Assembly: GCA_030017835.1 (NCBI GenBank)
Contig: JASEGU010000001.1
Span: forward strand, 88,341 to 152,340
Source: Actinomycetota bacterium
GTDB taxonomy: Bacteria; Actinomycetota; Aquicultoria; UBA3085; Oleimmundimicrobiaceae
Direction of reading: 5' to 3'
DNA length: 64,000 nt
In this document: piece after piece, positions 15,492 through 59,264 of the stretch
Layout of the letters: every line of letters begins with the position of its first letter
Numbering within the stretch: position 1 is the first letter of the stretch
The notes under the pieces: generated by a model
The model's input: the letters and a program-made list of their open reading frames with translations, nothing else
Database searches by the model: none
What the model was told of the DNA's origin: nothing
Program-made: the position numbers and the translations under genes

Positions 15492-16077
15492 ATGATTTGG
15501 AACCCAGACTTAGAATGTATGCCAAGAGAAGAAATCAAATCCATCCAACTGGATAGGTTAAAAGTGACTTTAAAGAGAGTAGATTCAAGTGTTGAATTTT
15601 ACAGAAATTCCTTCAAGGATAGCGGCGTAAACATCGATGATGTTAAGAGCTTAAGCAATCTCTCAAGCCTCCCCTTTACCACAAAAGATGACTTAAGAAG
15701 AGACTATCCCTTCAGGCTATTTGCGGCCCCGATGCGAGATATCGTAAGAATACATTCATCATCGGGCACGACCGGACAGGCCACAGTGGTCGGATATACC
15801 AATAGAGAGCGTCCTAATGGATATCGAGGGGACTGAGCCGCATTACCAGATACTCATAAAACGCGAGAACAACCTAGATATCATCGTCGCTTAAGTCGAG
15901 GTTTCAGACGAACTATTCTCCGATGAGGTCAAACAACTCGAAGCCTTAGAGAGGCGGACACAAGAGGCAATGGAGAGCGCTCTAAGCGTCTCAGTCATCG
16001 TCAAGCTGGTTGAGCCAAAGACCATCGAGCGGAGCGAGGGCAAGGCCAAAAGGGTAGTCGACCTAGGAAAGATTTGA
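15492..16077 (+). pseudogene. paaK: Phenylacetate-CoA ligase pseudogene (internal deletion plus stop)
   Basis: The first about 104 codons encode a good N-terminus of a phenylacetate-CoA ligase-type AMP-forming enzyme, including the nucleotide loop S-S-S-G-T-T-G-Q-A-T-V-V-G-Y-T. At about 15800-15804 the sequence jumps to the C-terminal end of the same family in another frame (I-E-S-V-L, then E-G-T-E-P-H-Y-Q-I-L-I). It continues to V-E-P-K-T-I-E-R-S-E-G-K-A-K-R-V-V-D-L at 16077. Roughly the central 230-250 codons of a normal 430-residue enzyme are missing. The joined frame stops at TGA 15834, and the C-terminal remnant has a further in-frame TAA at 15892. Shine-Dalgarno AAAGGGGG remains. The downstream ACT-domain gene, the usual partner of paaK, is intact. 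An assembly error is the main alternative. Confidence 0.85.
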
Positions 16078-16579: not shown

Positions 16580-17836
16580 ATGATCACAGAAAAGATTCAG
16601 CGCTTGCGGCTTGCGCGCCGTTTAACGAGGCGAGATAAAAAGCTCAAAGAGGCTAGGGCAGCGAGATCAAAACGGATTAAATGGCCCTGCGACCTTTTCG
16701 TCATCATTCTAACTCTCGCTCTTCTCATCCCAAGCTTGGTTTTTGCCTCGCCGCCGCCGATTATAACTGCTTCATCGGCCATATTGATTGATGCCAAGAC
16801 CGGCCGAACGCTCTGGGAAAAGAACTCTATGGTCCAGCGTCCGGTTGCAAGCACCACCAAGATGATGACTGCGATCCTGGCCATAGAGAATAGCAACCTT
16901 GAAGATATCGCTATCACCAGCCCTCAAGCGGCCGCAGCCGGAGAGGCCGAGATATATCTCGAACCCGGAGAGATGATCACGGTAAGAAACCTCCTTTTGG
17001 GGACGCTGCTCAAATCGGGAAATGATTCGGCAGTAGCTCTGGCCGAGCATACCTCCGGCAGCGTCAAGGATTTCGTGGCCCAGATGAATGAAAAGGCCGT
17101 TGAGATAGGGGCCAAAGATACCGTCTTTAGGAATCCAACAGGCCTCGAAGAGGCTGGCCATAAATCGACGGCCTACGATCTTGGCCTAATTGCAAGATAC
17201 GCCCTTCAGAATGAAACCTTTGCTCAGATGGTCGCGACCAAATCCTGCACCATCCCCTGGCCTAGCAATACGTTTCCAAGATCGCTCACGAACCATAATA
17301 AGCTTCTGCTTAAGTACGAGTATGTAACCGGGGTCAAGACGGGGTATACCAAAGAGGCCGGTCATTGCCTCGTCTCCTCGGCCGTCAAGGGCGATAAAAA
17401 GTTGATAGCCGTGGTCTTAAACTCGATAGGCAGCGAAGAGTGCTACCTCGATTCCGAAGTGGTACTCAATTATGGTTTTGCTAATTTCGATCCAAAGACG
17501 GTCTTAACCGTGGGTGAAGAGTTTGAGGCCATATCTATCTGGGGCAGGCCTCTAAGCAGCTTAACGATGAGGCCTGCCAAAGAGGTTGTCATGCTGATGG
17601 CCGAGGGTGAGAGGTTGACCTTCAAGAAATCGATAGTACTTAGCTATCCAAACAGGGGCATCAAGCGGGGAGAGAAGGTTGGCGAATTGATACTTGGAAA
17701 TGAAGATGACGATTTGACTTCAGTGGACCTAGTGGCTACGAGCGATGTAGACAAGGGTTTTTTCTGGATTCTATGGGATGCCGCCACCGCCCTTTTTGCC
17801 AAGACATCCTCTCTTTTGCAGCAAATTATTAGATAA
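16580..17836 (+). CDS. dacF: D-alanyl-D-alanine carboxypeptidase (DacF/PBP5 type)
   Basis: A low-molecular-mass penicillin-binding protein that trims the terminal D-Ala from peptidoglycan stem peptides outside the membrane. All three catalytic motifs of the S11 family are present: S-T-T-K (S91, K94), S-G-N (146-148) and K-T-G (253-255). A very basic N-terminal tail (about 35 residues) precedes a hydrophobic export segment (about 38-58, ending F-A-S). A C-terminal PBP5-type domain (about 310-390) precedes a weakly amphipathic end (F-F-W-I-L-W-D-A-A-T-A-L-F) that may contact the membrane. The 418-residue length is normal. The gene stands alone between the ACT protein and the rsiG-like operon. 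Confidence 0.93.
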   Translation: MITEKIQRLRLARRLTRRDKKLKEARAARSKRIKWPCDLFVIILTLALLIPSLVFASPPPIITASSAILIDAKTGRTLWEKNSMVQRPVASTTKMMTAILAIENSNLEDIAITSPQAAAAGEAEIYLEPGEMITVRNLLLGTLLKSGNDSAVALAEHTSGSVKDFVAQMNEKAVEIGAKDTVFRNPTGLEEAGHKSTAYDLGLIARYALQNETFAQMVATKSCTIPWPSNTFPRSLTNHNKLLLKYEYVTGVKTGYTKEAGHCLVSSAVKGDKKLIAVVLNSIGSEECYLDSEVVLNYGFANFDPKTVLTVGEEFEAISIWGRPLSSLTMRPAKEVVMLMAEGERLTFKKSIVLSYPNRGIKRGEKVGELILGNEDDDLTSVDLVATSDVDKGFFWILWDAATALFAKTSSLLQQIIR

Positions 17837-17856: not shown

Positions 17857-17879
17857 CTAACTGATTAAAGGAGGCTTAC

Positions 17880-18128
17880 GTGACTGACGAAGCTGACCTC
17901 AAAGATAATAAACTGATCAACCTCACGAGCAAGAGCTCCGAAGAACTGAGGGCCATTTTAGATGCCCTCTGCAAGGAGGAGGAGGAGCTCTCCTTGAAGC
18001 GCAGGATTTTGCATGGTCGAATAGATCTTATCCGGGCGGAGCTTACCGAAAGGGTTAAGGCAAAGGGAGAATCTTCGCTCAAACTTGATATCGATAAGAT
18101 TAACAAGATCTTGGCCGAGGGCCTCTAA
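17880..18128 (+). CDS. rsiG: RsiG-like cyclic-di-GMP-binding anti-sigma factor
   Basis: An 82-residue helical protein. Residues 34-49 fit the RsiG signature E-x3-S-x2-R-x3-Q-x3-D, with E34, S38, R41, H45 (His in place of Gln) and D49, followed by L-I-R-A-E-L. In Streptomyces, RsiG binds the sigma factor WhiG when loaded with cyclic di-GMP. Shorter actinobacterial homologues carry one motif per subunit and act as dimers, as this one would. A WhiG/FliA-type sigma factor is encoded at 58485-59264. The GTG start has a strong AAAGGAGG. The downstream FHA and MerR genes probably share the transcript. The match is by motif and size only; a generic short coiled-coil protein is the alternative. Confidence 0.7.
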   Translation: MTDEADLKDNKLINLTSKSSEELRAILDALCKEEEELSLKRRILHGRIDLIRAELTERVKAKGESSLKLDIDKINKILAEGL

Positions 18129-18165: not shown

Positions 18166-18615
18166 ATGGCGTGCAATAGATGCGGGTATGGCGGGATGAT
18201 CAAGGGCGATATCTGTCCCAAATGTGGTCGGGATGCACGGGGGACTGCTCTTTCGGGCGAGACGAGTTATCTTTCACCGGTGGAGCTCGAAAGCATTAAA
18301 ATGGCTGAGGAACAGGGCGGAGAGACTGAGGGTCCAGCTCTGATTGTAGAAAAGGGGCCGACCATCGGGATGGTATTTCCCCTCGATAAAGAGGAGACGT
18401 CGATAGGAAGACATCTCGGTAGCGACATCTTTTTAGATGACATAACGGTGTCGAGAAAGCATGCCCAAATATCCAAAAAGAGCGATGGATTCATACTGCG
18501 TGATATGGGCAGCTTAAACGGGACTTACGTCAACGAAGACCTGGTCGAAGAGACCTTTTTAAATGGCGGGGACGAGATTCAAATCGGCAGGTTCAAATTG
18601 GTCTTTAAGGCATAG
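18166..18615 (+). CDS. Zinc-ribbon FHA-domain protein
   Basis: A 149-residue protein. Residues 1-22 carry a C-x2-C...C-x2-C zinc ribbon (C-N-R-C-G-Y-G-G and C-P-K-C-G-R). Residues about 55-148 form an FHA phosphothreonine-binding domain with S-I-G-R, V-S-R-K-H-A and S-L-N-G-T-Y-V-N. FHA domains dock onto phosphorylated partners. In mycobacteria the equivalent gene position holds GarA, which regulates 2-oxoglutarate metabolism. Here the N-terminal zinc ribbon replaces the GarA phosphorylation peptide, so equivalence is not certain. The start is ATG 18166 with AAAGGTGG seven bases upstream. Confidence 0.9.
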   Translation: MACNRCGYGGMIKGDICPKCGRDARGTALSGETSYLSPVELESIKMAEEQGGETEGPALIVEKGPTIGMVFPLDKEETSIGRHLGSDIFLDDITVSRKHAQISKKSDGFILRDMGSLNGTYVNEDLVEETFLNGGDEIQIGRFKLVFKA

Positions 18616-18646
18616 ATGGTCATCTACCCAGAAGGTGTGAAAATTG

Positions 18647-19375
18647 ATGCTTGGATCGACGGATAGGGATTACGCAACCATAGGAGAGGTGGTTGAGGAG
18701 TTAAAGCGCGAATTTCCCGCACTTTCGATCAGCAAGATAAGATACCTTGAAGAAGAGGGGTTAATTAATCCCAAGAGGACGAGCGGTGGTTATAGGAAAT
18801 TCAGCACGAAAGATGTCGAAAGAATAAGAACCATTTTGCGCTTACAAAAAGAGAAATTCCTTCCCTTAAGCGTCATCAAGTCTCAACTTAAAGTCTTTTT
18901 GAAAACTGAAAATTACCCCAGAACTCATCCAAAGGTCGAGAAGGCTTTCGATACTGAGATGAGCCTGAAAAAAGCGGCCAAGTCTTTGAATATATCTGAT
19001 CCTGAGATCGAAACCCTTAAAGATTATAAGATAATCCAGCCGGTCGAGACCGAGGAGGGCAATGTCTTGGGCTCCATCGATCTCTCCATAATGAAGCTGG
19101 TAAAAAAATTGGAAAACTACGGCATGGAGCCGCGCCATATAAGGTTTCTGGAGAACACGATCGAGAGGGAGCTCTCCTTCTACCAACAGATATTCCCCTC
19201 CTCTATGATGCAAAAGGGAGATAAGGGAAGGAAGAGGGCCCTTGGCGACTTCTCAAACTTCATTACGATGACCCAGGATTTAAAGGACCTTCTTCTCAAG
19301 AAATCGATCAAGTCGAACTATGGGGCCGATCTCTTAAGAAATGAGGAGGACGGGAGAGGATCGGTCGATCTTTAG
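18647..19375 (+). CDS. MerR family transcriptional regulator
   Basis: A MerR-type winged helix lies at about residues 8-78: the pattern T-I-G-E-V-V-E-E-L, I-S-K-I-R-Y-L-E-E-E-G-L-I-N-P-K-R-T and G-G-Y-R-K-F is characteristic. A long helical C-terminal half (about 105-240) replaces the usual short dimer helix, and no metal-binding cysteines are present. Actinobacteria carry such a MerR gene just after the FHA (GarA) gene, as here. ATG 18647 is preferred, with in-frame TTG 18644 directly before it and GAAGGTG upstream. The target promoters are not evident. Confidence 0.9.
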   Translation: MLGSTDRDYATIGEVVEELKREFPALSISKIRYLEEEGLINPKRTSGGYRKFSTKDVERIRTILRLQKEKFLPLSVIKSQLKVFLKTENYPRTHPKVEKAFDTEMSLKKAAKSLNISDPEIETLKDYKIIQPVETEEGNVLGSIDLSIMKLVKKLENYGMEPRHIRFLENTIERELSFYQQIFPSSMMQKGDKGRKRALGDFSNFITMTQDLKDLLLKKSIKSNYGADLLRNEEDGRGSVDL

Positions 19376-39548: not shown

Positions 39549-39755
39549 ATGATAAAGGTCGATTTAGAAATATGCGATGGTTGCGGTCTTTGCGAAAAGG
39601 CCTGCAAATATAGGGCGATAAAATTGATCGATGGCAAGGCTCGAATCGCTCCAAGCTGCAATTCATGTAAAGCATGTTTTACATCCTGTGGCAACAGAGC
39701 TCTGATTGATATGACTTATGAGGTTTTGAGGAAAGAAGGGGAAGAGACCAAGTGA
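39549..39755 (+). CDS. Two-[4Fe-4S] ferredoxin-like protein
   Basis: A 68-residue protein with two cluster motifs, C-D-G-C-G-L-C-E-K-A-C and C-N-S-C-K-A-C-F-T-S-C, both C-x2-C-x2-C-x3-C, so it can hold two [4Fe-4S] clusters. It sits between etfB and etfA and overlaps etfA by four bases (GTGA). A low-potential carrier exactly here is what an electron-bifurcating or confurcating Etf system would need. It could also be an electron entry domain to EtfA, which in some species is fused to a ferredoxin. Confidence 0.92.
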   Translation: MIKVDLEICDGCGLCEKACKYRAIKLIDGKARIAPSCNSCKACFTSCGNRALIDMTYEVLRKEGEETK

Positions 39756-40747
39756 AGTCGATCTGGGTCTTTATCGAGATTAGAAGGGGAAAGATTGCCC
39801 CAGTCTCGCTCGAAATCTTGGGTGAGGCGAGGCGGCTTGCAAACCAATTGGGCGGAAAGCTGGTTGCTCTTGTTTTGGGACAAAATCTCAAGGAGATCTC
39901 CGAAGAGATAGCTACATTTGGACCAGATGAGGTTATTGTTCTGGAGGATGAGGCGTTGACCGAGGCGAGTGAAGATAACTTTGCTCAGGCCTTGGCCGAA
40001 CTGGTCAAACGATACTCACCAGATATTATTCTTGGTGGAGCTACCATTTTTGGCAGAGCCATGATCCCTCGCCTTGCGGCCATGCTCGAGACCGGCCTTA
40101 CAGCCGACTGCCTTGAGCTAGCCATCGATCAAGAGAGCGGTCTGCTTCTTGGTAGTTGCCCAGGCTTCGGCGGCAACGTAATGGCCGAGATCGTCTGTCC
40201 GGACAAACGGCCCCAGATGGCGACGATCAGGCCTAATGTCTTAAAATCACCTGCTCCTGATGGCTCAAAGCCCTGCAAAATATTTTACGAAAAATTGGAG
40301 AAGGGACTGATCTCAAAGAGTGAGATTCTGGAATTCATCGAGACCGAAGGCGATGCGGTCAATCTTGAGGACGCAGAGATAATTGTTGGCTGTGGCCGCG
40401 GAGCGGCCACAGAGAAGAACTTCGAACTAGTAAAAGAGCTGGCGGATCTGCTCGGAGCCAGTCTCGGCGCAACCAGGCCGCTGGTGGATAACGGTCTTGT
40501 CGCCTATCAACAGCAGATCGGTCAGACGGGAAAGACCGTTTCTCCAAAACTCTACATCGCTTGCGGAATTTCTGGGGCAATTCACCACGTGGCTGGAATC
40601 CAGTCGTCCGACTGCATAATCGCCATAGACAAAGATCCGGATGCCCCCATATTCGACGTTGCAACATATGGGATAGTCGGCGATGTTGCGGCCGTTCTTC
40701 CCCATCTCATCGACGAGATCAGACGGAGTGGAAGGGGGCCGGCATGA
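39752..40747 (+). CDS. etfA: Electron transfer flavoprotein alpha subunit
   Basis: A 331-residue EtfA. The N-terminal Rossmann-like half is followed by the FAD-binding C-terminal half with V-G-C-G-R-G-A, G-A-S-L-G-A-T-R-P-L-V-D-N-G, Q-I-G-Q-T-G-K-T-V, G-I-S-G-A-I-H-H and A-I-D-K-D-P-D-A-P-I-F. GTG start overlaps the ferredoxin gene. The stop overlaps the fabD start (ATGA), so the Etf module is translationally joined to the fatty acid genes. Confidence 0.95.
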   Translation: MKSIWVFIEIRRGKIAPVSLEILGEARRLANQLGGKLVALVLGQNLKEISEEIATFGPDEVIVLEDEALTEASEDNFAQALAELVKRYSPDIILGGATIFGRAMIPRLAAMLETGLTADCLELAIDQESGLLLGSCPGFGGNVMAEIVCPDKRPQMATIRPNVLKSPAPDGSKPCKIFYEKLEKGLISKSEILEFIETEGDAVNLEDAEIIVGCGRGAATEKNFELVKELADLLGASLGATRPLVDNGLVAYQQQIGQTGKTVSPKLYIACGISGAIHHVAGIQSSDCIIAIDKDPDAPIFDVATYGIVGDVAAVLPHLIDEIRRSGRGPA

Positions 40748-41688
40748 AACACAAGCTAGCGTTCATCTTCCCTGGTCAAGGCTCCCAATATGTAGGTATG
40801 GCCAAAGATCTTATGGCTCTTGGAGATGAGTACGAGGTCCTCTTCGATCGGGCAAGCGACGTCTTGAAGAGGGACATCAAAGAGATCGCTGTCTCCGGTC
40901 CCGAAGGAGAGCTTTCTAGGACACAAAATACCCAACCGGCCATTTTCATAACCAACCGTATAGCCGAACTCTGTTTGCGGAGAGAGGGGATGGAGCCCAG
41001 CATTGTGGCTGGGCACAGCCTTGGAGAGTATAATGCCCTTCTTTCGGCCGGTGTCTTCGATTTTGAGACAGCGCTAGGCTTGATAGCAGAACGCTCGCTT
41101 ATCATGGAGAGGACGGCGGCCGAATCGCCCGGCAAGATGGTCGCTGTGATCGGCCTGGACGCAAAGACCGTTCAAGAAACGATATTAAACTTGAGCAATG
41201 AGGGCGTGATAGGCATAGCCAATTATAATTCACCCGCTCAAGTGATAGTCTCAGGTGAGAGCGGACTGATCGCTCTGTCCCTTCAGAAACTTAAGGCTGC
41301 CGGCGCAAAGCGGCTGATAGAACTCGAGGTTAGCGGCGCCTTTCACTCCAAGTTGATGGCAACCGCTGCGAAAGAATTCTCGAAAAAAATTGACTCTGTC
41401 AACTTTGCGGAGCCAAAGTGCGCCGTGGTCTCAAACTTGACCGGCAGGGCTTCAAGATCGGCCGACGAATTGAAGAAGGCTCTGATCGGCCAGATGGACT
41501 CATCAGTCCGTTGGGTCGATTCGGTCCTCGAAATGGAGGCCGAGGGCGTTCACACCTTCATAGAACTTGGACCAAAAAAAGTCCTATGTGGCCTGGTCTC
41601 CAAGATACTCCCCGGAGCAACCACACTAAATGTGGAGGATAGCGAGAGTCTAAAAGCGACCATTTCAGCCATTAAGGAGGCAAAATGA
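40744..41688 (+). CDS. fabD: Malonyl-CoA:ACP transacylase
   Basis: FabD loads malonate from CoA onto ACP. The 314-residue protein has F-P-G-Q-G-S-Q at the start and the active-site G-H-S-L-G (Ser92) typical of acyltransferases, plus S-G-A-F-H-S with the catalytic His. I place the start at ATG 40744, which overlaps the etfA stop and has AAGGGGG upstream; the open frame continues upstream inside etfA but is not family-like. The fabG start overlaps the end by four bases. Confidence 0.96.
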   Translation: MKHKLAFIFPGQGSQYVGMAKDLMALGDEYEVLFDRASDVLKRDIKEIAVSGPEGELSRTQNTQPAIFITNRIAELCLRREGMEPSIVAGHSLGEYNALLSAGVFDFETALGLIAERSLIMERTAAESPGKMVAVIGLDAKTVQETILNLSNEGVIGIANYNSPAQVIVSGESGLIALSLQKLKAAGAKRLIELEVSGAFHSKLMATAAKEFSKKIDSVNFAEPKCAVVSNLTGRASRSADELKKALIGQMDSSVRWVDSVLEMEAEGVHTFIELGPKKVLCGLVSKILPGATTLNVEDSESLKATISAIKEAK

Positions 41689-42428
41689 ATCTTTCAAACA
41701 AAGTTGCTCTAGTTACCGGAGGAGCTAAAGGCATAGGCAGAGAGACATGTCTGCGCCTTGCCGAGCTCGGAGCCGATATAGTCATAAACAGCACGTCCAG
41801 CAGTCAAGATGTTCCTTCGCTCATCGAAGAGATCGAGGCTCTGAAGGTTAAGGCGCTTCATCTTCCGGCCGACGTCTCGAAGATGGCGGGAGCCAAGGAA
41901 TTGATCGACAAATCCCTTGAAGCCTTCGAAAGGATCGATATTTTAGTCAATAACGCCGGCATAACCCGCGATAATCTAATTATCAGGATGAAAGAGGACG
42001 AATTTGACGACGTGATTGCCGTGAATTTAAAGGGTGTCTTCAACTGCATTCAGGCCGCTTCAAGAGGGATGCTCAAGCAGAGGAGCGGCTCGATAATAAA
42101 CGTCTCCTCGGTCGTCGGTCTGACCGGAAATATCGGTCAAGCAAACTATGCGGCCTCAAAAGCTGGTATAATTGGTCTGACCAAGACGGTGGCCAGAGAG
42201 TTTGCCTCGAGAGGGATACGGGCTAACGCTGTGGCTCCAGGATTTATCGAGACCAGGATGACAGAAGTTCTACCAGTTGAAACGAGAGAAAAGCTCATCT
42301 CATCGATACCCCTTGGGGTCTTTGGAACTCCAAGAGACGTCGCTAACCTAATAGCCTTCTTGGCCTCGGATGAGGCGTCTTATATAACAGGTCAGGTTAT
42401 AAGTGTTGACGGCGGAATGGTAATGTAA
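41685..42428 (+). CDS. fabG: 3-oxoacyl-ACP reductase
   Basis: FabG reduces 3-oxoacyl-ACP with NADPH. The short-chain dehydrogenase motifs are complete: T-G-G-A-K-G-I-G (cofactor), N-N-A-G, and the catalytic set S142, Y155, K159 with the usual spacing. The R-D-N-L stretch near 100 and the C-terminal D-G-G-M are FabG-like. 247 residues. ATGA overlap with fabD. The 3' end carries a probable promoter for acpP. Confidence 0.96.
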   Translation: MNLSNKVALVTGGAKGIGRETCLRLAELGADIVINSTSSSQDVPSLIEEIEALKVKALHLPADVSKMAGAKELIDKSLEAFERIDILVNNAGITRDNLIIRMKEDEFDDVIAVNLKGVFNCIQAASRGMLKQRSGSIINVSSVVGLTGNIGQANYAASKAGIIGLTKTVAREFASRGIRANAVAPGFIETRMTEVLPVETREKLISSIPLGVFGTPRDVANLIAFLASDEASYITGQVISVDGGMVM

Positions 42429-56503: not shown

Positions 56504-57577
56504 ATGGATGAGAAGAGATATATTCTGGGCCTGAAGTCCATACCGACCCTAAATAACAGGCTTAACAGGGTTGTGGATCACTTCAGAAGCGCCAAAGCAG
56601 CTTGGCACGGCACGCTCGACGATTACATTAAGATGCCCGGTTTCGATGTAGGGCTGGCCAAGGAGGCGTTAAAATCCCGCGACGACTTGGATTTAGATGA
56701 GCTTCTAAAGCGACTGGCTGACCGGAAGATCTCCGTGATGAGTTTGGACGATCCAGAATATCCCGATTCGCTCAGAAGGATTTTTGATCCTCCACTGCTC
56801 TTATTCTACAGAGGCGATCTCATCAAAGATTATCGGGTCGCCGTATCGGTGGTCGGGGCAAGGGGGGCGAGTCCGTACGGAAGGAGCGTGGCCCAAGAGA
56901 TTGCCGAGGAGCTTTCCAACTGTGGCATCACCGTAATAAGCGGAGTTGCCAGGGGGATCGACTCGGCCGCGCACGCGGGCGCCTTAAAGGGCGAGGGAAA
57001 AACGATCGGTGTTCTAGGCTCGGGACATGACGTCATATACCCACCAGAAAACAAGAATCTCTACTCTTTGATAGCAGAAGAGGGCAGTCTGATATCGGAA
57101 TATCTCTACAACACCCCGCCCCTTAAGTGGAACTTTCCGGCTAGAAACAGGATAATAAGCGGTCTTGCGCAGGCGGTGGTGGTCGTCGAAGCCACGGAGA
57201 AGAGCGGAGCCCTTTTGACAGTCGATTACGCTCTGGAGCAGAATAGGGAGGTCTTTGCGGTCCCAGGAAACGTCAAGAGCAAGCTCAGCCGGGGACCACA
57301 CAACCTTCTTAAGGCAGGTGCTTGCTTGGTCGAAAGCGGAGCCGATATAATCGAAGCGTTGGGGCTCATCCCGGTAAAAAAGGAAAGGGTCGATGCAGAG
57401 CTTGCCCCCCTTGAAAGGGAGGTTCTAGATTTCGTTGGATACGAACCTAGGCACATCGATGAGATAACTGTGAAACTCGGGCTAAGTACCTCCGATATCG
57501 CGGCCCTCCTGACCAAACTTGAGATAATGGGCCACCTCAAGCAAGATATGGGCAAAAATTATTTAAGGATAACATGA
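56504..57577 (+). CDS. dprA: DNA-processing protein DprA
   Basis: DprA binds incoming single-stranded DNA and loads RecA during transformation. The 357-residue protein has a helical N-terminal part (about 1-65), a Rossmann core with V-V-G-A-R-G-A-S, S-G-V-A-R-G-I-D-S-A-A-H and P-A-R-N-R-I-I-S-G-L (about 110-285), and a C-terminal winged helix (about 300-355; H-I-D-E-I-T-V-K-L-G-L). ATG start 15 bases after comM. The pair could serve natural competence, but no comE genes are visible in the window. Confidence 0.95.
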   Translation: MDEKRYILGLKSIPTLNNRLNRVVDHFRSAKAAWHGTLDDYIKMPGFDVGLAKEALKSRDDLDLDELLKRLADRKISVMSLDDPEYPDSLRRIFDPPLLLFYRGDLIKDYRVAVSVVGARGASPYGRSVAQEIAEELSNCGITVISGVARGIDSAAHAGALKGEGKTIGVLGSGHDVIYPPENKNLYSLIAEEGSLISEYLYNTPPLKWNFPARNRIISGLAQAVVVVEATEKSGALLTVDYALEQNREVFAVPGNVKSKLSRGPHNLLKAGACLVESGADIIEALGLIPVKKERVDAELAPLEREVLDFVGYEPRHIDEITVKLGLSTSDIAALLTKLEIMGHLKQDMGKNYLRIT

Positions 57578-57584
57578 GGAAGAC

Positions 57585-58469
57585 ATGGAGAGAGAGATAG
57601 AGGTTTTTTTGAAGTATTTAGCCATCGAGCGGAATATGTCGAAGCATACCATAAAGGCCTATCGCTCCGATCTTCATCAATTTGCTTCATTTGCTCAAAG
57701 GGCCGGACATGATTCTCCCGAAGTAATAGCCTACAGAGACTTAAGGAGCTACCTCTCATACCTTAACACCCTGGGCTATACCCGACGAAGCATTTCAAGA
57801 AAGCTTACTTCGATACGCTCATTCTTCTCTTATCTCCAAAAGGAGTCGCTGCTTTGCGCTAACCCGGCTACCTTGCTCTCCTTTCCAAAGATAGAAAGAC
57901 GCCTTCCCAAGAGTCTTAGCTTAGACCTGGTAAATAAGCTGCTCTCAGCCCCCGACAGCAAGGATGATCTTGGAATTCGTGATGGCGCCTTGCTTGAAAT
58001 CATCTATGGGAGCGGAATCCGGGTTTCAGAAGCCGTTGGTCTCAATCTTTCCGATGTCGATCAGTCTGCGCAGGAGATAAGGGTACTTGGTAAGGGTTCA
58101 AAGGAACGGATATTGCCCTTACATCCCGAGGCTCTGAGGAAGTTAAGAGTATACGTAGAAACGGCGAGAAAACGCCTTTTGGAGAGCGATACCGACGCTC
58201 TCTTTTTAAATGCGCGTGGTGGGCGACTCACCGACGGGTCGGTTAGAAGGATGGTCAAAAAATATATCGATCGGCTTGGGATCGAGATGGATATAACCCC
58301 CCACGTCTTGCGGCATGCCTTTGCGACCCATCTCTTGGAAGCCGGGGCAGACCTTAGGTCCATCCAAGAACTATTGGGCCACGTTGATTTATCCTCGACC
58401 CAAATCTATACTCAACTAAGTAAAGCAAAGCTGAAGGAGATCTACTCCAGAGCTCATCCCCGGGCTTGA
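57585..58469 (+). CDS. xerC: Site-specific tyrosine recombinase XerC/XerD
   Basis: Xer recombinases resolve chromosome dimers at dif. The 294-residue protein has the N-terminal SAM-like core-binding domain and a complete catalytic set: R146, K170, H240, R243, H266 and nucleophile Y275. The gene order dprA-xerC-whiG supports the housekeeping recombinase and not an integrase; no att-like repeats are seen beside it. XerC versus XerD cannot be told by eye. Confidence 0.92.
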   Translation: MEREIEVFLKYLAIERNMSKHTIKAYRSDLHQFASFAQRAGHDSPEVIAYRDLRSYLSYLNTLGYTRRSISRKLTSIRSFFSYLQKESLLCANPATLLSFPKIERRLPKSLSLDLVNKLLSAPDSKDDLGIRDGALLEIIYGSGIRVSEAVGLNLSDVDQSAQEIRVLGKGSKERILPLHPEALRKLRVYVETARKRLLESDTDALFLNARGGRLTDGSVRRMVKKYIDRLGIEMDITPHVLRHAFATHLLEAGADLRSIQELLGHVDLSSTQIYTQLSKAKLKEIYSRAHPRA

Positions 58470-58484: not shown

Positions 58485-59264
58485 TTGGATGATAAAGACG
58501 CCTTAGCGGCGAGGCTTTGGAAGGATTATGCCAGGGAAAAGAGAAGGGTAGTGCGGGATGAGCTGATATTAAACTACGCACCCCTGGTAAAATACGTGGC
58601 CGGCCGAATCTCGGCCGGCCTTCCAAACAATATCGAGCGGGGCGACCTTGTCAGTTACGGCATGTTCGGCCTGATCGATGCCATAGATAAGTTCGATACC
58701 TCAAAGAATATAAAATTTGAGACCTACGCTATATCGAGAATTAGAGGGGCCATAATCGATGAACTTAGGTCGATCGATTGGGTTCCAAGGTCGGTCAGAA
58801 GGAAGGAGCGCGAACTCGAGCGATCCTACGTCGAACTGGAAGCGAAGTATAAACGGGCTCCGACCGACGCAGAGCTTGCTGAAAAACTAGAGATCTCGAT
58901 CGAAGAACTCCATGCTCTATACAATCAATTGAGCTATACGACGACGGTCGCCTTAGAGGAGTTCTGGCACACGGGTGGGGGCAAGGATGATCAGGTAAGC
59001 CTGATCGATACCATCAAGGATACACACGGACCAGAACCTCTCAAAGAGTTCGAAGTAGAAGAGGTCAAAAGGACTCTGGCCAAGAAAATAGAGGATCTAC
59101 CCAAGAGGGAGAAGATGATAATCGCCCTTTACTACTATGAGGGGCTGACCTTAAAAGAGATAGGCCAGGTACTCGGGGTGACAGAGTCAAGGGTATCTCA
59201 GCTTCACACCAAGGCGGTCTTGCGCCTCAAAGCGCACGCCAAGGATTCTCTCTCATTGCTATAA
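58485..59264 (+). CDS. whiG: WhiG/FliA-type RNA polymerase sigma factor
   Basis: A 259-residue group 3 sigma-70 factor with region 2 (E-R-G-D-L-V-S-Y-G-M-F-G-L-I-D-A-I-D-K-F-D, then F-E-T-Y-A-I-S-R-I-R-G-A-I-I-D-E-L-R), region 3 (P-T-D-A-E-L-A-E-K-L) and region 4 (G-L-T-L-K-E-I-G-Q-V-L-G-V-T-E-S-R-V-S-Q-L-H). The R-S-x-D-W-V-P-R-S-V-R line is the FliA/WhiG hallmark. In Streptomyces WhiG starts sporulation; in many other bacteria this class controls motility. The RsiG-like protein at 17880-18128 is its probable c-di-GMP-dependent inhibitor. TTG start. Confidence 0.94.
   Translation: MDDKDALAARLWKDYAREKRRVVRDELILNYAPLVKYVAGRISAGLPNNIERGDLVSYGMFGLIDAIDKFDTSKNIKFETYAISRIRGAIIDELRSIDWVPRSVRRKERELERSYVELEAKYKRAPTDAELAEKLEISIEELHALYNQLSYTTTVALEEFWHTGGGKDDQVSLIDTIKDTHGPEPLKEFEVEEVKRTLAKKIEDLPKREKMIIALYYYEGLTLKEIGQVLGVTESRVSQLHTKAVLRLKAHAKDSLSLL

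What the first reader, a model, noticed from the sequence alone, without database searches (positions are those of the whole stretch)
17880..18128. RsiG-like anti-sigma factor and a WhiG-type sigma factor in the same genome window
The 82-residue protein carries E34-x3-S38-x2-R41-x3-H45-x3-D49, the RsiG cyclic-di-GMP motif with Gln replaced by His. A WhiG/FliA-type sigma factor lies at 58485-59264. Established: RsiG holds WhiG when bound to c-di-GMP, and single-motif forms act as dimers in early-branching actinobacteria. Inference: this deep lineage uses the switch, perhaps for motility or pili. The Gln to His change in a ligand-contacting position is unusual.
Basis: partly seen in the sequence, partly recalled or inferred. 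Interest (0 to 1): 0.65.

Follow-up and report, generated by a model that had tools for sequence, protein, structure and literature searches.

The report
Single-motif RsiG anti-sigma factor with WhiG
The small protein is a real, ordinary-looking member of a known family of anti-sigma factors that hold a sigma factor when the messenger cyclic-di-GMP is plentiful, and this genome also carries the matching sigma factor, the cyclic-di-GMP enzymes and a plausible set of target promoters; the residue change flagged as unusual is in fact the commonest form.

Summary
The 82-aa ORF (17880-18128) hits Pfam RsiG (60.8 bits, cut-off 27) and the solved RsiG structures, with all five c-di-GMP motif residues E34-S38-R41-H45-D49. 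The sigma factor at 58485-59264 passes NCBI's WhiG equivalog cut-off and keeps the K-x3-G-R c-di-GMP contacts. The genome has six GGDEF genes and five HD-GYP matches (no EAL). The "unusual" Gln to His change is wrong: His is in 48 of 56 single-motif RsiGs sampled, and the published Conexibacter woesei RsiG with His binds c-di-GMP. New context: (1) rsiG sits upstream of garA-type FHA and ftsR in 35 of 37 loci of this class and beside one or both genes in other single-motif classes; (2) the genome also encodes FliA with its own FlgM, and all 12 FliA paralogs compared carry Glu where WhiG has the c-di-GMP-contacting Gly; (3) flagellar-type promoters are enriched, and four of 11 c-di-GMP turnover genes have one (p = 3e-4), with weaker matches before a type IV pilin, motA and cheA. 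Most likely a c-di-GMP-gated (RsiG)2-WhiG switch as in Rubrobacter, tuning pili and c-di-GMP enzymes. New member of a known kind. Binding itself was not testable here.

The parts
17880..18128 (+). rsiG: single-motif c-di-GMP-dependent anti-sigma factor, 82 aa, GTG start
   Evidence: Pfam PF22802 60.8 bits; PDB RsiG hits; AlphaFold helix 20-62 with short N- and C-terminal helices
17979..18026 (+). c-di-GMP-binding motif E34-x3-S38-x2-R41-x3-H45-x3-D49
   Evidence: sequence; all five residues invariant in alignment A1
17867..17874 (+). Shine-Dalgarno sequence AAAGGAGG before rsiG
   Evidence: sequence
16580..17836 (+). dacF-type D-Ala-D-Ala carboxypeptidase, conserved upstream neighbour of rsiG in much of the class
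   Evidence: sequence, named by reading; neighbourhood
18166..18615 (+). FHA-domain protein of GarA/OdhI type, downstream neighbour
   Evidence: Pfam FHA 68.3 bits; OdhI model 120.4 bits, below its cut-off of 200
18644..19375 (+). ftsR, MerR-type regulator
   Evidence: NF050798 FtsR 179.5 bits, cut-off 150
58485..59264 (+). whiG: sigma factor, likely partner of RsiG; c-di-GMP-contact residues K36, G40, R41
   Evidence: NF004935 WhiG 368.6 bits; 6pfj_A E = 7.5e-93; contacts; WhiG side of the tree 100/100
56504..57577 (+). dprA, upstream of xerC and whiG
   Evidence: Pfam DNA_processg_A
57585..58469 (+). xerC/D-type recombinase, directly upstream of whiG
   Evidence: Pfam Phage_integrase

Best explanation
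The ORF encodes a single-motif RsiG. Two copies form an antiparallel coiled coil that binds a c-di-GMP dimer through the two E-S-R-H-D motifs; so armed, it clamps the sigma2 and sigma4 domains of WhiG and keeps it off RNA polymerase. When c-di-GMP falls, WhiG is released and transcribes genes with TAAA-N15-GCCGATAA promoters: type IV pilus genes, some c-di-GMP-making and -breaking enzymes (a feedback loop), and perhaps part of the chemotaxis and motor genes shared with the separate FliA/FlgM pair. Shown here: family membership, motif, partner, contact residues, enzymes, promoter enrichment. Inferred: dimerisation, ligand binding, WhiG sequestration, and which sigma factor reads which promoter.
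For: Family hits. All motif residues intact. WhiG equivalog with K36, G40, R41 matching Rubrobacter K53, G57, R58; all 12 FliA paralogs compared, own FliA included, have Glu in place of that Gly. RsiG and a WhiG score of at least 230 bits co-occur: 49 of 52 RsiG-positive genomes against 3 of 8 RsiG-negative, p = 5e-4; one of those three, G001, also lacks the neighbouring ftsR, so its rsiG may be an assembly gap. Six GGDEF genes, five HD-GYP matches, no EAL. Promoters: 8 upstream-of-gene sites with at most 1 mismatch against 1.15 expected, maximum 3 in 20 permuted controls; 4 of 11 c-di-GMP genes have a site (at most 2 mismatches) against 38 of 1210 others, p = 3e-4. Over 36 genomes of the class 214 exact promoters against 62 controls; in 19 without a FliA paralog or flagellin domain, 87 against 32. 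In two such genomes exact sites lie 22 bp before a pilT-like gene and 13 and 27 bp before GGDEF genes.
Against: Rubrobacter contact K243 is Gln228 here, R43 is Glu26, K218 is Glu, so part of the interface differs. The position after the motif Ser is Leu where most relatives have Tyr or Phe. The pilin, motA, cheA and one HD-GYP site have 2 mismatches, a class in which about half the hits are expected by chance. FliA could read the same promoters. Some exact sites in relatives lie inside genes.
Confidence: 0.85

Rival explanations
1. RsiG regulates FliA, the flagellar sigma factor, instead of or as well as WhiG, and so gates flagella directly.
For: Both are sigma-28-type factors with the same promoter code; sites occur near cheA and motA.
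Against: FliA has its own FlgM encoded in the same flagellar cluster; it has Glu where WhiG contacts c-di-GMP with Gly; RsiG persists in 19 class genomes without a FliA paralog or flagellin domain.
Confidence: 0.1
2. The protein is an RsiG homologue that has lost c-di-GMP control and acts as a constitutive or differently gated anti-sigma factor.
For: Short protein, Leu after the motif Ser, some Rubrobacter contacts not conserved.
Against: All five ligand residues conserved; WhiG K-x3-G-R kept; c-di-GMP enzymes present.
Confidence: 0.05
3. A chance coiled-coil ORF that resembles RsiG.
For: Low-complexity helical sequence; the Foldseek search of the model found nothing.
Against: E = 1e-16 to the family; conserved gene order in 35 of 37 loci of the class.
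Confidence: 0.01

Closest known systems
(RsiG)2-(c-di-GMP)2-WhiG of Rubrobacter radiotolerans (PDB 7lq4; PMC8325347)
   Same: Single motif, small protein, WhiG partner, deep-branching actinobacterium, predicted pilus and DGC/PDE promoters
   Different: His instead of Gln; some WhiG contacts differ; a separate FliA/FlgM pair is present in this genome
RsiG of Conexibacter woesei (PMC8325347)
   Same: Single motif with His, reported to bind c-di-GMP (Kd 25 uM; 1.7 uM with WhiG)
   Different: Other class (Thermoleophilia); sequences not compared directly here
RsiG-WhiG of Streptomyces venezuelae (PDB 6pfj)
   Same: Same family; WhiG is the best solved-structure match
   Different: Twin-motif monomer there, controlling sporulation; Streptomyces-type twin-motif genes are not beside garA-ftsR
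FlgM-FliA
   Same: Anti-sigma and sigma-28 pair, same promoter code; present in this genome
   Different: Unrelated anti-sigma family, not a c-di-GMP receptor (own knowledge)

Membership tests
RsiG (PF22802) | Profile match above the curated cut-off | tested here: met
   60.8 bits against 27
RsiG (PF22802) | E(X)3S(X)2R(X)3[Q/H](X)3D motif | tested here: met
   E34, S38, R41, H45, D49
RsiG (PF22802) | Long helix carrying the motif, flanked by N- and C-terminal extensions | tested here: met
   H3-8, H20-62, H65-79, mean pLDDT 85.4
RsiG (PF22802) | Antiparallel homodimer (single-motif form) | not testable with these tools
   no multimer prediction
RsiG (PF22802) | Binds c-di-GMP | not testable with these tools
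   needs a binding assay
RsiG (PF22802) | Cognate WhiG in the genome | tested here: met
   58485-59264; co-occurrence p = 5e-4
WhiG | Equivalog cut-off and c-di-GMP-contact K-x3-G-R | tested here: met
   368.6 against 343; K36, G40, R41
WhiG | Rubrobacter sigma4 contacts T237, R239, K243 | tested here: inconclusive
   T222 kept, K224 a conservative change, Q228 not kept; PMC8325347 reports no sigma4 contacts to c-di-GMP in the Streptomyces complex

The most novel reading that the evidence does not exclude
A two-sigma network in one deep actinobacterium: FliA under FlgM and WhiG under c-di-GMP-armed RsiG read one promoter code, so that c-di-GMP decides between pili, motility and its own turnover. 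A side line: twin-motif RsiG may have arisen a second time within this class, since G009 and G011 carry twin-motif RsiG in the same rsiG-FHA-ftsR locus; a single duplication is not rejected (AU p = 0.21 and 0.54).
Probability: 0.35. Interest if true: 0.55.

Novelty: new member of a known kind. Interest (0 to 1): 0.35.

Why it matters
It carries the only known sigma/anti-sigma pair gated by c-di-GMP (so described in PMC8325347) into a deep actinobacterial class and shows it is very common there: 52 of 60 relatives and 200 of 297 sampled phylum genomes, against 134 of 673 actinobacterial genomes reported in 2021 (the sampling differs). The conserved position upstream of garA-ftsR in single-motif lineages was not mentioned in the two papers checked and suggests an ancestral locus linking c-di-GMP to division and carbon/nitrogen control (inference). 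Having WhiG/RsiG and FliA/FlgM in one genome gives a natural test of how two sigma-28-type factors divide one promoter code.

Tried and rejected
Foldseek of the RsiG model: no match better than E = 3, a single long helix is not distinctive. Pattern TAAA-N13-17-GCCGATA, exact, in the own genome: 13 against 11 in the control, not informative; the full GCCGATAA with spacing 14-16 is. Independent origin of twin-motif RsiG: the tree hints at it, but the AU tests do not reject one origin. Paper search for RsiG with GarA gave only unrelated papers. One Pfam query (protein 10) was aimed at motA with the wrong locus and returned a FliI-type ATPase; motA was then checked.

Full report
Observation. The ORF at 17880-18128 has a good ribosome-binding site and sits between a dacF-type gene and an FHA gene. 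Pfam RsiG scores 60.8 bits against a cut-off of 27, and the solved RsiG proteins of S. venezuelae and R. radiotolerans are the best PDB matches. The motif residues are E34, S38, R41, H45 and D49. AlphaFold predicts a long helix 20-62 with short helices on either side, the plan described for Rubrobacter RsiG in PMC8325347.

Gln to His. PMC8325347 reports that His is frequent in the first motif of twin-motif RsiGs and that the single-motif C. woesei RsiG, with His, binds c-di-GMP with Kd 25 uM, and 1.7 uM with WhiG. In the loci collected here 48 of 56 single-motif proteins have His and 7 Gln; the one left over is a divergent twin-type protein, G041, counted as single because only one motif is strict. 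The change is therefore the rule.

Partner. The ORF 58485-59264 lies after dprA and xerC and passes the WhiG equivalog cut-off. A second sigma-28-type gene lies on contig C8:30611 in a flagellar and chemotaxis cluster that also encodes FlgM (Pfam 55.2 bits), CsrA and FliW. The tree splits WhiG from FliA with 100/100 support. WhiG keeps K36, G40 and R41, matching Rubrobacter K53, G57 and R58; 30 of 33 WhiG rows have the Gly (three have Ser) and all 12 FliA rows have Glu. That favours WhiG as the partner but does not prove it.

Co-occurrence. 49 of 52 RsiG-positive genomes have a WhiG score of at least 230 bits, against 3 of 8 RsiG-negative, Fisher p = 5e-4. The three positives without are G020, G028 and G047, all under 90% complete. 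The genomes are related, so p is optimistic. G001 lacks ftsR too, so its missing rsiG may be an assembly gap.

c-di-GMP enzymes. GGDEF domains in six ORFs (seven matches), one a fragment near a contig end; five HD-GYP matches; no EAL. A PilB-type ATPase carries an MshEN domain, a known c-di-GMP receptor domain (own knowledge), so pili may also be controlled directly.

Promoters. With TAAA-N14-16-GCCGATAA over 1.087 Mb, 42 sites lie upstream of genes with at most two mismatches against 20.8 (SD 8.5) for permuted motifs; with at most one, 8 against 1.15. Sites precede HD-GYP genes at C23:10197, C7:1301 and C15:2291 and a GGDEF gene at C25:10082: 4 of 11 c-di-GMP genes against 38 of 1210 others, p = 3e-4. 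Two-mismatch sites precede a type IV pilin (C5:3892, minus strand), motA (C14:17288, minus strand) and cheA (C8). Gene calls were a simple longest-ORF set, and the site at C25 is 148 bp from the GGDEF start with a doubtful 50-aa ORF between. Across 36 genomes of the class exact promoters number 214 against 62 reversed controls; 87 against 32 in 19 genomes without FliA paralog or flagellin domain, so WhiG alone probably reads them. In G029 and G034 they lie 22 bp before a pilT-like gene and 13 and 27 bp before GGDEF genes. This matches the Rubrobacter regulon reported in PMC8325347.

Gene order. rsiG lies within 2.5 kb of both FHA and ftsR genes in 35 of 37 loci of the class, counting some genomes twice; single-motif loci of other classes have FHA, ftsR or both nearby; of the other-class twin-motif loci only L015 does. 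PMC6683498 reports odhI/garA-ftsR as conserved with a variable upstream region. PMC8325347 does not mention synteny, FHA or ftsR.

Twin-motif forms in the class. G009, G011 and G020 have two motifs; G009 and G011 lie in the usual locus, and in G020 the contig ends. The second repeats form a group (90/93), but neither all first repeats nor all second repeats as one clade is rejected. Independent duplication is open.

Verdict. A sound RsiG/WhiG pair, a new member of a known kind in a poorly known lineage; ligand binding and complex formation remain inferred.

Noticed in passing
window 15492-15836 (+): 114-aa ORF that reads like the N-terminal part of a phenylacetate-CoA ligase, followed closely by an ACT-domain-like ORF; probably a truncated or frameshifted gene. 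Named by reading only.
   Followed up: no
own genome contig C8:37573-39614 and 39679-41720 (locus L170 and L171): Two neighbouring gene pairs with the same lengths (165 and 513 aa) and identical first 70 residues: a recent tandem duplication or an assembly artefact.
   Followed up: no
own genome contig C8 (locus L157): Flagellar cluster with flgK, flgL, flgN, flgM, csrA and fliW, but the only flagellin-domain match in the genome is the FlgL-like gene at C8:3426-4319; flagellin itself was not found.
   Followed up: partly
relatives G009 (L073), G011 (L074), G020 (L075): Twin-motif RsiG in the same class as the single-motif window protein; in G009 and G011 in the same gene neighbourhood.
   Followed up: partly
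own genome contig C5:8072-9757 (locus L154): PilB-type ATPase with an MshEN domain, a possible second point of c-di-GMP control of pili.
   Followed up: partly
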